Positions 3,526 through 9,984 of a stretch of 64,000 nt of DNA are shown one piece after another (the first letter of the stretch is position 1; each line of letters opens with the position of its first letter). Position numbers and translations under genes: made by a program. Origin of the DNA: an uncultured Myxococcales bacterium (GTDB taxonomy: Bacteria; Myxococcota_A; UBA9042); assembly GCA_903840165.1 (NCBI GenBank), contig CAIMEY010000074.1, positions 1 to 64,000 of the forward strand. Direction: 5' to 3'. Below the pieces are notes generated by a model. The model saw nothing but the letters and a program-made list of their open reading frames with translations. It searched no databases and was not told the DNA's origin.

Positions 3526-4251
3526 TTAGCCGTGCTGAGCAGCATTGAGCCGATCCACCTCGACCTGGGCAGAACCGCTGCCGTCGACCATCACGCCATC
3601 CTGAATCCGCACCACGCGCCGTGCGTGCTGCATGACCCGCGGGTCATGGGTGGAAAACAGAAAAGTCACGCCTTTCTCGCGGTTTAGGTGCAGCATCAAG
3701 TCGATGATTTGGTCCGACGTCACCGAGTCCAGGTTGGCGGTCGGCTCATCGGCCAGCACCAGCTGCGGTTGGGTCACCAAAGCGCGGGCAATCGCCACGC
3801 GTTGTCGCTGACCTCCCGATAATTCATCGGGTTTATGCTTGAGGAAGGGGTCCAGGCCTACGTCGCGCGCGACTTGCTGCACCCGCTCGCGCAGTTCCTT
3901 CTTGTTTTCGCCGCGAATCAGGCAAGGAAACTCAATATTTTCAATGACATTGAGCACTGGAATCAGGTTGAACGATTGGAAGATGAAGCCAATTTTTCGA
4001 TTGCGTATCTCCGCAAGATCATTAAAGTCGCGCGTGCCGACCTCTTCGCCGTCGAGCTTGTAAGAGCCCGAAGTGGCGTTGTCCAAACAGCCGATGATGT
4101 TGAGCAATGTGGTCTTGCCTGAGCCCGATGGGCCCATGACGACGGTGAATTCGCCCCGTTCTAGCGTCAGGTCGACGCCGCGCAGGGCCGAGACCTCGGT
4201 CTTGCCGAGCTGATAAGTCTTTGTGACGCCTTTGATTTCAACCAGGGACAT
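3526..4251 (-). CDS. LolD/MacB-type ABC transporter ATP-binding protein
   Basis: Cytoplasmic ATPase of 241 residues, typical for the LolD/MacB class. Walker A is GPSGSGKTT near residue 40. The Q-loop lies in FIFQSFNL, the ABC signature is LSGGQRQR, Walker B is LVLADEPT, and the H-loop is FSTHD. This class powers FtsX-fold permeases that extract lipoproteins or lipids from the inner membrane, rather than classical importers. Two such permeases lie upstream on the same strand (6716-9226). The LolA-like and beta-barrel genes sit between, so all five likely form one machine. It is 51 bp downstream of the beta-barrel gene. Confidence 0.95.
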   Translation of the reverse strand: MSLVEIKGVTKTYQLGKTEVSALRGVDLTLERGEFTVVMGPSGSGKTTLLNIIGCLDNATSGSYKLDGEEVGTRDFNDLAEIRNRKIGFIFQSFNLIPVLNVIENIEFPCLIRGENKKELRERVQQVARDVGLDPFLKHKPDELSGGQRQRVAIARALVTQPQLVLADEPTANLDSVTSDQIIDLMLHLNREKGVTFLFSTHDPRVMQHARRVVRIQDGVMVDGSGSAQVEVDRLNAAQHG

Positions 4252-4302
4252 GAGAACTCCTGCACAGACCCGGTCGCAACCGGGACAACGCCAACGCCGG
4301 CG

Positions 4303-5922
4303 TTAGTAAAAGAGGCGAGCACTGAGAAAAGCACGCCATACCAGGGGGTTGACGCCAAATTCGCTGTAGCGCGTGCCATCGCCGGCCAGGCCGCCGCGGC
4401 TTTGAACTCCGGGAATCGACATGAAGCCGGCAGCTGTGATCGACAGCCATTCGCGGGCGCTCCAGGTCACAGTGGGCGCTAAAGTACCTGAAAAATCTTC
4501 CAAATCCATCAGGACTAGGCCAATAACCGACCAGTCATCGGCAATCTGCGATTGCTGGTAGCTCAGCAAAGCGTAATGGCGACGCACGGGATCAAAGGCA
4601 AATCGCTGGGGTGACCCTGGATCGCTGGGCGCCGGCGTGGCCAATCCTGCGCCGCTTGGCAAGGTCAGGCCACTGCGCGCAGCTGAACTCATCAACTGCA
4701 CTGCGCTGATATAGCTGCTAAATTCATTGCTGTTGTAGCCGTCGCCGTTGTACAGATACTCGGCGCTGACCTGGGCCGCGTCGCCAAACATGTAGCGCAC
4801 GCCGGCGATGGCTTTGGCGCGAAACACGCCGTCGTCGAGCTTGCTGTAGCCAGCGACGGGCTTTCCGCTTGTCACGCAACCTACGGCGGTGGCTAGACTT
4901 TGCACACAATCGCCTTGGACTTGCAGCCGGGCCGAACCCGTCTGCCCCAGGGCTTCGACATGCAATTCCCAAGCGTTGGCAAAGATATGCGACGCAGAAA
5001 GGCCCAGACGTGGCTTCCACGTGAAGGCATCATTGTAGAGCTGTGTCATGTAAACCATGGCATTAATATCGGTTTCGTGCCAAAGCCCGTAAGCCCGCAG
5101 TGCCGTTGCGAAGTGCGGCCGCGTGTCGTCCGCCGTGGCGACCTTGTTGCCGTTGTTGTCCAGGGTGGTCAGGGCCGGGTAGTCTGGGTAGTACAGCAAA
5201 GACCCAGGAATTCCGCCGTATTGTCGCGTCACCTTGGCAGCGCCAACCAGGGACAATGTCCATTTTTCAAAGGGCGCTTCGACCCGCGCCAGCCAAGCGC
5301 CGGCCCGTTGCAAGGTCGGGTCGCTGGGATCCTTTGGCGGATTGAGCAGATCGGTCGGATTCAGGGTGATGCCCGGGCCCCAAGTGATGCGCTTTTTGCC
5401 CAGCAGGATCTGCAAATGTTCACTGGGCCGCCAATTGCCATACAATTCGCTGACAATCGCCGCGGGATGGTAGGTCGCGACGTCGTGATCGGCCACGCGC
5501 GCTTGTTGCCCCGTGTCGTCCGCAGTCCAGTAGCCACCGGCCTTTTGGTACAGAAAGGAAACGTCGGCCCCGCCATCGCCCACGTCCTGGCCATCCTTGT
5601 CTTTCCAGCGTAATTTCAGCTGGATATTGGCCTCGCTAAGGTTGGACCAAGTCGGCACATCGCGCGACGGCAGCAATCGGTCCCAGCCGACGCGCGTGTA
5701 ACTCTGCCGCGAATCGAGCCAGCCATTGGTGGTGACCAGTAGCCGCTGGGGTGCATCGGCGGGCACAACCAATGCAATTTCAGCAGATTGCTCAGGTGTC
5801 GCAGCTGTGCCCGCATCCGGCAATGCCGCTGCATCCTGAGCCATGGCGGGCCAAGCGACTACGGCAGCCGCAATTGCGCCACACGCGCCTGCCCAAAGGG
5901 GAATCGGACGTCGCAATGCCAT
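4303..5922 (-). CDS. Predicted outer-membrane beta-barrel protein of the ABC/LolA operon
   Basis: A 539-residue protein with an N-terminal signal peptide (MALRRP start, hydrophobic stretch, cleavage near AMAQD). The mature part is rich in alternating aromatic/polar strands and ends in SARLFY, a C-terminal Tyr typical of barrel insertion signals. The start at 5922 lies one base after the stop of the LolA-like gene, so translation is probably coupled. An upstream in-frame ATG at 5943 would overlap that gene. It resembles barrels found next to outer-membrane lipoprotein-sorting proteins (DUF1302-like), but I cannot assign a family firmly. A role as the outer-membrane receiver or channel is inferred from context. 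Confidence 0.7.
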   Translation of the reverse strand: MALRRPIPLWAGACGAIAAAVVAWPAMAQDAAALPDAGTAATPEQSAEIALVVPADAPQRLLVTTNGWLDSRQSYTRVGWDRLLPSRDVPTWSNLSEANIQLKLRWKDKDGQDVGDGGADVSFLYQKAGGYWTADDTGQQARVADHDVATYHPAAIVSELYGNWRPSEHLQILLGKKRITWGPGITLNPTDLLNPPKDPSDPTLQRAGAWLARVEAPFEKWTLSLVGAAKVTRQYGGIPGSLLYYPDYPALTTLDNNGNKVATADDTRPHFATALRAYGLWHETDINAMVYMTQLYNDAFTWKPRLGLSASHIFANAWELHVEALGQTGSARLQVQGDCVQSLATAVGCVTSGKPVAGYSKLDDGVFRAKAIAGVRYMFGDAAQVSAEYLYNGDGYNSNEFSSYISAVQLMSSAARSGLTLPSGAGLATPAPSDPGSPQRFAFDPVRRHYALLSYQQSQIADDWSVIGLVLMDLEDFSGTLAPTVTWSAREWLSITAAGFMSIPGVQSRGGLAGDGTRYSEFGVNPLVWRAFLSARLFY

Positions 5923-5923
5923 G

Positions 5924-9226: not shown

Positions 9227-9265
9227 GCAGGCTCCTTGGCAATCGCGGCGTCCCAGGAAAAACGA

Positions 9266-9278
9266 ACGTTCATTCAAT
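9266..9278. promoter_or_regulatory. Putative TetR operator before the permease operon
   Basis: The 13-base string ACGTTCATTCAAT lies 40 bp before the first permease start. It differs by one base from the site in front of tetR. It overlaps the palindrome GAACGTTC (9264-9271), the kind of inverted repeat TetR dimers bind. On the minus strand a CATAAT hexamer (plus-strand 9277-9282) directly abuts it and could be a -10 box, although no good -35 box is visible. Confidence 0.5.
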
Positions 9279-9315
9279 TATGCCGCGGCCATCACCGCAG
9301 CCCTGTTAGATGACG

Positions 9316-9984
9316 TTAGCTGGATTTGGCTGCGGATAGCTCGCCGCGTTGGGGCGGTTGGTAGCGGTCTATGGCGGCGGCACCGCGGAGAAACTGATCG
9401 ACCAATTGTTGAGCGTGCAGGCGCGGATGGGCGACAAAACGATGGGACGGATTGAGGATGAGCAACTGCCGCCACAGCATGACCGGGGCAAAGCACACCG
9501 ACGCCAGCAGTTCGGGGTCACCCGCGCGAAACAGGCCTATTTCCAAGCATTTTGCCATTAGGTCAATAAGAGGTTGCCGCTGGGCCCCCATCCGCTCGAA
9601 GTAGTTGATGCGGCCCTGACCGGCTAGGCGCATGCCGTCTGAAAGCATGATCCGAAAGCGCTTTTGCTCCCGATCGCTGGCGCAATGGAGCAGCATCCGG
9701 GCGATCCACTCCTCGAGGCTGCGAGCTACGTCGTCGATCGTCGGCAGGGCCGGTAACAGGGTGTGCGCAGGCGTCAGCGGCCTAAAATCAAAGACGACTG
9801 CGTCAAAAATCGCTTCCTTGTTGGTGAAATGGTGGTAGATGGCACTTTCGCGCACACCGACGGCCTTGGCCAAGTCGCGCAGACTCGTGCCGTAGTAGCC
9901 GTGTTCACTGAACAATTCTAGGGCCGCGTCGACAATCGCTTGCCGCGTGTCTCGCTGCTCACTTGTCTTGGGGCGACCGACCAT
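9316..9984 (-). CDS. TetR-family transcriptional regulator
   Basis: A 222-residue regulator. The N-terminal helix-turn-helix spans about residues 12-58 (RQAIVDAALELFSEHGYYG, then TSLRDLAKAVGVRESAIYHHF), the classic TetR pattern ending in YHHF. The C-terminal ligand and dimer domain is unique to it. It lies upstream of the permease operon on the same strand, 89 bp away. The promoter proposed in front of it contains the shared operator, so autorepression is likely. Its inducer is unknown. Regulators of this kind often respond to lipids or toxic compounds, which would fit the transport genes, but this is inference. Confidence 0.93.
   Translation of the reverse strand: MVGRPKTSEQRDTRQAIVDAALELFSEHGYYGTSLRDLAKAVGVRESAIYHHFTNKEAIFDAVVFDFRPLTPAHTLLPALPTIDDVARSLEEWIARMLLHCASDREQKRFRIMLSDGMRLAGQGRINYFERMGAQRQPLIDLMAKCLEIGLFRAGDPELLASVCFAPVMLWRQLLILNPSHRFVAHPRLHAQQLVDQFLRGAAAIDRYQPPQRGELSAAKSS

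What the first reader, a model, noticed from the sequence alone, without database searches (positions are those of the whole stretch)
3526..9984. Complete trans-envelope lipid or lipoprotein export operon under TetR control
Seen: tetR, two FtsX-fold permeases, a LolA-like carrier, a beta-barrel and a LolD-type ATPase follow each other with gaps of 1-90 bp. Known: LolCDE/A lacks a dedicated outer-membrane barrel and a TetR switch. Inferred: this is a separate machine that moves a lipid or lipoprotein from inner to outer membrane on demand. The barrel may replace LolB.
Basis: partly seen in the sequence, partly recalled or inferred. Interest (0 to 1): 0.62.

Follow-up and report, generated by a model that had tools for sequence, protein, structure and literature searches.

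The report
TetR-controlled lipid export operon, Myxococcota
Six neighbouring genes in a myxobacterium-like bacterium encode a switchable machine that most likely pulls a fatty, water-insoluble molecule out of the inner membrane and hands it to a dedicated outer-membrane pore; it is an undescribed variant of known transport systems, and is probably not the lipoprotein sorter it resembles.

Summary
On the minus strand, tetR, two FtsX/LolC-E-type permeases, a LolA_like (PF17131) carrier, an outer-membrane barrel and a LolD-type ATPase lie at 3526-9984 with gaps of 1-89 bp. The five transport genes keep this order in 53 of 58 related Myxococcota loci. TetR control is well supported: two near-identical palindromes, at the tetR promoter and before permease 1, are the only perfect copies in the 5.7 Mb genome; the motif occurs in 19 of 20 tetR-bearing relatives but 3 of 37 without tetR. 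The genome has a separate canonical LolA and a LolD/LolC-E-like pair, so this is a distinct machine. 'Barrel replaces LolB' is not supported: the model is an 18-strand porin-like barrel related to DUF1302, and the carrier is closer to DUF1329/LolA3 structures than to LolA. A related carrier-barrel pair is driven by an RND pump in a related genome, as in AmeABCD. In several Proteobacteria, ATPase-permease-carrier-barrel units sit among acyl-chain/polyketide genes. Best reading: a TetR-repressed exporter of a hydrophobic small molecule or lipid, substrate unknown. New variant of a known kind; no direct functional data exist.

The parts
9316..9984 (-). tetR: TetR-family repressor, 222 aa
   Evidence: Pfam TetR_N 1.5e-19; orthologue adjacent to the operon in 19 of the 53 complete related loci
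9991..10018 (-). tetR promoter: TTGACA-16-TACATT (10 of 12)
9991..10004 (.). operator O1, AACGAACGTACATT, overlapping spacer and -10 of the tetR promoter
   Evidence: binding not tested
9261..9274 (.). operator O2, AATGAACGTTCGTT, 35 bp before the ATG of permease 1
   Evidence: binding not tested
7997..9226 (-). permease 1 (FtsX/MacB_PCD, LolC/E-LolF-like), 409 aa
6716..7939 (-). permease 2 (FtsX/MacB_PCD), 407 aa (an ATG at 7957 is also possible)
5924..6667 (-). LolA_like periplasmic carrier (PF17131), 247 aa with a signal peptide and no lipobox
   Evidence: Pfam 1.2e-40; model pLDDT 86.2, 3BUU TM 0.78 and DUF1329 4Z48 TM 0.76
4303..5922 (-). 18-strand outer-membrane barrel, DUF1302-related, 539 aa
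3526..4251 (-). LolD-type ABC ATPase, 241 aa
   Evidence: ABC_tran 2e-34; TIGR02211 238 bits, below its 307.75 cut-off; 42% identical to E. coli LolD

Best explanation
The operon encodes a TetR-repressed trans-envelope exporter of a hydrophobic small molecule or lipid. [quoted passage not shown] (2) the LolA_like protein takes it into its hydrophobic groove and crosses the periplasm; (3) it unloads into the dedicated 18-strand DUF1302-type barrel, which releases the molecule into the outer leaflet or the medium; (4) TetR sits on two operators, shutting off itself and the transport genes, until the substrate or a precursor binds it. Shown here by computation: the parts, the conserved order, the operators and their co-occurrence with tetR, the barrel and carrier folds, and the homology of carrier and barrel to pairs used with RND pumps and in acyl/polyketide clusters. 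Inferred: direction of transport, substrate class, physical contacts and TetR ligand. Whether the substrate is an endogenous lipid or a toxic amphiphile is undecided.
For: Order conserved in 53 of 58 loci, permuted but complete in five loci of other Myxococcota families; five-protein distance correlations 0.77-0.93. Operators: only two perfect sites in the genome; 19/20 tetR loci against 3/37 without tetR. Barrel model with 18 strands, PDB barrel matches, DUF1302 link (prob 92.7), controls FadL, OmpF and Omp85 negative. Carrier nearest to DUF1329/LolA3 folds. RND-LolA_like-DUF1302 operons in the same family; AmeABCD precedent (PMC6394551); YbbAP-TesA precedent for a type VII ABC that extracts hydrophobic compounds (PMC12646458). 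Proteobacterial homologous units beside ketoacyl synthase, FeeM-like, malonyltransferase or phosphopantetheinyl transferase genes.
Against: No substrate, biosynthetic gene or conserved neighbour accompanies the Myxococcota operon. Proteobacterial units have one permease and 23-30% carrier identity, so their cargo may differ; Vibrio and Plesiomonas units have no acyl genes next to them. The ATPase and permeases are closest to lipoprotein transporters by sequence. Two related loci have permeases and carrier but no barrel or ATPase nearby (L133, L137).
Confidence: 0.6

Rival explanations
1. A second, inducible lipoprotein exporter: a LolCDE/LolA duplicate that moves one or a few lipoproteins to the outer membrane or, through the barrel, to the cell surface.
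For: ATPase and permeases score best against LolD and LolC/E models and LolF/LolE structures; the carrier is in the LolA superfamily; a similar proposal exists for Borrelia BBJ23-29 (PMC13078400).
Against: All Lol equivalog cut-offs are missed; LolC-type Hook loop absent in both permeases; carrier nearer to DUF1329/LolA3 than to LolA; no lipoprotein gene travels with the operon; a related carrier-barrel pair works with an RND engine; the genome already has a separate LolA and LolD/C-E-like set.
Confidence: 0.17
2. An importer or retrograde system: the barrel takes up a hydrophobic compound and the LolA_like protein delivers it to the inner membrane, with the ABC part driving acquisition or repair.
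For: DUF1302 proteins occur in hydrocarbon- and terpene-using bacteria (PMC6394551); the barrel is porin-like.
Against: The type VII ABC members characterised so far extract or export, or transmit force outward (MacB, LolCDE, YbbAP; PMC12646458); no catabolic genes accompany the operon; AmeABCD deletion lowered tolerance and raised dye accumulation, pointing to efflux (PMC6394551).
Confidence: 0.1
3. The parts are only loosely linked: the ABC permeases and the carrier-barrel pair do separate jobs and share a cluster because they answer the same envelope stress.
For: Permeases, or barrel plus ATPase, are missing from the cluster in a few genomes; orphan permease pairs exist in this genome and in G016.
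Against: The linkage persists across gene orders and into Proteobacteria; the carrier-barrel pair always comes with some inner-membrane engine in the loci examined.
Confidence: 0.13

Closest known systems
LolCDE-LolA-LolB lipoprotein sorting pathway
   Same: LolD-like ATPase, two LolC/E-like permeases and a LolA-fold carrier; probable extraction by ATP-driven mechanotransmission
   Different: No LolB; adds a transmembrane barrel and a TetR switch; misses the LolC/E, LolD and LolA equivalog cut-offs; no LolC-length Hook
AmeABCD apolar monoterpene efflux system (Castellaniella; PMC6394551)
   Same: DUF1302-type outer-membrane protein plus LolA-superfamily (DUF1329) periplasmic protein in one operon with an inner-membrane engine
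   Different: Engine is an RND HAE3 pump, not ABC; has an extra periplasmic protein AmeC; no adjacent tetR described in the passages read
YbbAP-TesA (E. coli; PMC12646458)
   Same: Type VII ABC transporter proposed to extract hydrophobic compounds from the inner membrane to a periplasmic partner
   Different: Partner is a hydrolase, not a carrier; no outer-membrane component
Borrelia BBJ23-29 cluster (PMC13078400)
   Same: Type VII ABC transporter, LolA-like protein and a dedicated outer-membrane barrel in one cluster; substrate unknown
   Different: Barrel is Omp85 family; one permease (homodimer); TPR chaperones; no TetR
Aryl polyene transport genes ApeLMN (E. coli; PMC8253772)
   Same: LolA-like carrier in a dedicated system that places a lipid in the outer membrane
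   Different: RND engine, LolB-like acceptor, no barrel
Plasmid-borne ATPase-permease-LolA_like-barrel units in Proteobacteria (e.g. NZ_CP060058, NZ_CP080773)
   Same: Homologous ATPase, permease, PF17131 carrier and (in most cases tested) barrel, contiguous
   Different: One permease instead of two; in acyl/polyketide clusters or beside two-component genes; no adjacent tetR seen; uncharacterised

Membership tests
LolCDE-LolA-LolB pathway | Permeases reach the LolC/E equivalog cut-off (TIGR02212, 362 bits) | tested here: not met
   94 and 103 bits
LolCDE-LolA-LolB pathway | ATPase reaches the LolD equivalog cut-off (TIGR02211, 308 bits) | tested here: not met
   238 bits, best of all models
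LolCDE-LolA-LolB pathway | Carrier is PF03548/TIGR00547 LolA | tested here: not met
   TIGR00547 16 bits against 112; PF17131 instead; fold nearer DUF1329
LolCDE-LolA-LolB pathway | LolC Hook loop that recruits LolA (PMC10865981) | tested here: inconclusive
   The aligned loop is about 6 residues shorter in both permeases; Hook sequence is poorly conserved even in true LolC, so a structural test is needed
LolCDE-LolA-LolB pathway | Moves lipoproteins | not testable with these tools
   needs experiment
PF17131 LolA_like | Score over the curated cut-off (30 bits) | tested here: met
   139.6 bits
DUF1302 (PF06980) outer-membrane proteins | Score over the curated cut-off (23.2 bits) | tested here: not met
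   no match by hmmscan or in the own genome; remote link only by profile-profile comparison, prob 92.7, E 4e-7
AmeABCD-type RND exporter | RND/HAE3 inner-membrane pump | tested here: not met
   engine is ABC/FtsX; RND version exists in relatives
MacAB-TolC efflux pump | MacA-type adaptor, TolC-type channel, ATPase fused to permease | tested here: not met
   no adaptor or TolC-type protein among the six genes, ATPase is a separate gene, barrel is porin-like
Type VII ABC (MacB/LolCDE/FtsX) superfamily | FtsX C-terminal domain with MacB_PCD periplasmic domain and a separate or fused ABC_tran ATPase | tested here: met
   PDB relatives LolF, LolE, MacB
TetR autorepressed operon | Shared palindromic operator at the tetR promoter and the target promoter | tested here: met
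TetR autorepressed operon | TetR binds the operators and is released by a ligand | not testable with these tools
   needs EMSA/footprinting and a ligand screen

The most novel reading that the evidence does not exclude
This operon belongs to an undescribed, widespread class of trans-envelope exporters: a type VII ABC engine, a PF17131/DUF1329-type carrier and a DUF1302-type 18-strand barrel, found in Myxococcota and Proteobacteria, that exports acyl lipids or polyketides. The carrier-barrel pair is modular and can be driven by either an ABC or an RND engine; the window holds a TetR-switched, two-permease version.
Probability: 0.45. Interest if true: 0.7.

Novelty: new variant of a known kind. 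Interest (0 to 1): 0.5.

Why it matters
How lipids other than LPS and lipoproteins cross the periplasm and outer membrane is still poorly known. An operon with a complete set of parts (engine, carrier, outer-membrane exit and a probable substrate-sensing switch), with relatives in which the engine is swapped or the unit sits in a biosynthetic cluster, makes the substrate question directly testable. It also suggests that many genes annotated 'outer membrane lipoprotein-sorting protein' may not sort lipoproteins.

Tried and rejected
(1) Substrate from neighbours: clustering of flanking genes in the homologous loci found no conserved partner beyond the core; the window's own downstream neighbours (N-formylglutamate amidohydrolase-like gene and DUF4442) were not found next to the family homologues. 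(2) Barrel by sequence: nothing useful in Pfam, NCBIfam or the PDB, hence profile-profile comparison and structure. (3) Generic-barrel artefact in hhalign: rejected, since FadL, OmpF and Omp85 score at or below 1% probability. (4) TetR regulon as a clue to substrate: no perfect operator elsewhere in the genome. (5) Genome G016 as proof that permeases are dispensable: rejected, because an orthologous pair lies on another contig. (6) Literature: no paper found describing an ABC-PF17131-DUF1302-like unit; the library lacks most subscription journals and preprints.
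Full report
WHAT IS THERE. The six genes reported are real and lie on the minus strand: tetR 9316-9984, permease 1 7997-9226, permease 2 6716-7939, LolA_like 5924-6667, barrel 4303-5922, ATPase 3526-4251. Refined starts give gaps of 89, 57, 48, 1 and 51 bp. The raw TTG start of permease 1 at 9277 is rejected because AAGGAG precedes ATG 9226 and an operator lies at 9261-9274. One promoter-like site on this strand (tetR, TTGACA-16-TACATT, 10 of 12) and no terminator-like site on this strand were found inside the cluster.

CONSERVATION. The genome has three PF17131 genes. In the 22-genome order to which it belongs (all one family), 16 genomes carry a strong orthologue of the carrier and 16 of the barrel. 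A scan of genomes of 84,980 species with the carrier alignment gave 59 loci, 58 of them close relatives, mostly labelled Myxococcota and including Archangium, Pyxidicoccus and Hyalangium (a few MAG titles such as Klebsiella or Silvanigrella are probably unreliable). Of those 58, 53 keep permease-permease-lolA-barrel-ATPase, 19 with tetR in front. One more (L141) has the same order with a broken lolA, one (L099) is cut by the contig end, one (L091) lacks the permeases, and two (L133, L137) lack barrel and ATPase. In the genome of L091 (G016) an orthologous permease pair (65% identical for permease 1) sits on another contig. Pairwise distances of the five proteins correlate at 0.77-0.93, as expected for genes inherited together. 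Five loci from other Myxococcota families show a permuted version, barrel-ATPase-permease-permease-lolA, with a homologous barrel in the one compared (prob 98.7, E 4e-16). Outside the window's family the window-type operon is patchy: only 2 of 262 other sampled genomes had a strong barrel match.

THE SWITCH. A near-palindrome, consensus AACGAACGTTCGTT, occurs at the tetR promoter (9991-10004) and before permease 1 (9261-9274). The pattern AAYGAACGTWCRTT was written to fit both sites; with it, no other perfect copy exists in 5.7 Mb. The independent test is in relatives. Within 1 kb upstream of permease 1, 19 of 20 tetR-bearing loci have at least one site of 11/14 or better (the twentieth is truncated), often one at tetR and one at permease 1, against 3 of 37 tetR-less loci; background is 0.056 per kb (Fisher p 4e-11, not corrected for relatedness). 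O1 lies over the spacer and -10 of the tetR promoter, the place expected for a repressor. That -10 is so close to the tetR start codon that the tetR mRNA may be leaderless (inference).

THE PARTS. Permeases: FtsX plus MacB_PCD domains; the best solved relatives of permease 1 are LolF, LolE and MacB, but both permeases are far below the LolC/E equivalog cut-off, and the loop that forms the LolC Hook (PMC10865981) is about six residues shorter in both, with its own conserved motif in each subunit. Carrier: PF17131; its model (pLDDT 86.2) is closest to 3BUU (TM 0.78), DUF1329 protein 4Z48 (0.76) and P. gingivalis LolA3 (0.74), ahead of LolB (at most 0.68) and classical LolA (at most 0.57). LolA3 was reported to bind LolB only weakly and to have a separate function (PMC13103446). 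Barrel: model pLDDT 85.9, pTM 0.84. My count of its strands gives 18, with 8 short periplasmic turns and 9 outer loops; the most conserved stretch (GKKRITWGPGITLNPTDLLNPPKDPSDP, within residues 175-208) is the third outer loop, which in porins folds into the pore (inference from topology). Foldseek finds AlgE, OmpU and OccK barrels. Profile comparison links it to DUF1302 (prob 92.7) and to the barrel of a paralogous ATPase-permease-permease-lolA-barrel operon in the same genome (prob 96); FadL, OmpF and Omp85 controls are negative.

SEPARATE FROM LOL. The same genome has a canonical PF03548 LolA (contig C82) and a LolC/E-like permease with a LolD-like ATPase next to an Omp85/POTRA protein (contig C78). 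So the operon is an additional system.

WHAT IT MOVES. No direct evidence exists. Three indirect lines favour a hydrophobic small molecule or lipid over lipoproteins. First, in the same bacterial family an RND pump (MMPL, Patched and sterol-sensing domain matches) takes the place of the ABC engine in operons RND-LolA_like-DUF1302; the published RND/DUF1329/DUF1302 system AmeABCD gives tolerance to monoterpenes (PMC6394551). Second, ATPase-permease-LolA_like-'hypothetical' units on plasmids of Aliiroseovarius, E. coli, Paraburkholderia, Rahnella and Enterobacter lie beside ketoacyl synthases, a FeeM-like N-acyl amino acid synthase, malonyltransferases or a phosphopantetheinyl transferase. The hypothetical proteins after LolA_like match the window barrel in four of five proteobacterial cases tested (E. 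coli prob 97.2, Vibrio 97.0, Paraburkholderia 94.2, Aliiroseovarius 87.9); Rahnella is weak (52.9). Vibrio and Plesiomonas units lack acyl genes nearby. Third, the carrier and the permease loop depart from the lipoprotein-specific features, as above.

MECHANISM. Most likely: ATP-driven extraction from the inner membrane, hand-over to the LolA_like carrier, unloading at a dedicated barrel, release at or beyond the outer leaflet, and TetR derepression by the substrate or a precursor. The anatomy and regulation are shown computationally; transport direction, substrate and contacts are inferred. Rivals are a second lipoprotein exporter, an importer, and loosely linked parts.

KNOWN OR NEW. Each half is known: the inner half resembles LolCDE and YbbAP (PMC12646458) and the outer half resembles AmeA/AmeB. 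Borrelia BBJ23-29 (PMC13078400) is a similar idea with an Omp85 barrel, and aryl polyene clusters pair an RND pump with LolA-like and LolB-like proteins (PMC8253772). I found no paper on this combination. Verdict: a new variant of a known kind; interest moderate, higher if the substrate proves to be a lipid.

Noticed in passing
G000:C72, locus L047:2749-10097: A second, diverged operon in the same genome: ATPase-permease-permease-LolA_like-barrel, without tetR in the stretch read; its barrel has no Pfam match but is a remote homologue of the window barrel.
   Followed up: partly
L034:6679-10590 and L212:5238-7796 (genome G016): A natural split of the operon: tetR-lolA-barrel-ATPase remain together, while the orthologous permease pair sits on another contig beside a lycopene cyclase gene.
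   Followed up: partly
L214:4194-6857 (G000:C119): An orphan pair of permeases of the same family with no carrier or ATPase gene next to it; it may share the ATPase of another system.
   Followed up: no
L207:59-9705 (E. coli plasmid NZ_CP060058): Acyl biosynthesis cluster (ketoacyl synthase, FeeM-like synthase, crotonase) with its own ATPase-permease-LolA_like-barrel unit; found in 2 of 5,426 E. coli genomes.
   Followed up: partly
L215:807-6524 (G000:C78): LolC/E-like permease (about 830 aa), LolD-like ATPase and an Omp85/POTRA protein adjacent: probably the housekeeping lipoprotein and barrel-assembly genes side by side.
   Followed up: partly
window 9984-9996: The -10 of the tetR promoter ends 7 bases before the ATG, so the tetR mRNA may be leaderless; relatives show similarly short spacing.
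   Followed up: no
window 10095-10976: Neighbour gene on the opposite strand encodes a secreted protein with a MYXO-CTERM-like tail; homologues lie near the operon in a few relatives.
   Followed up: no
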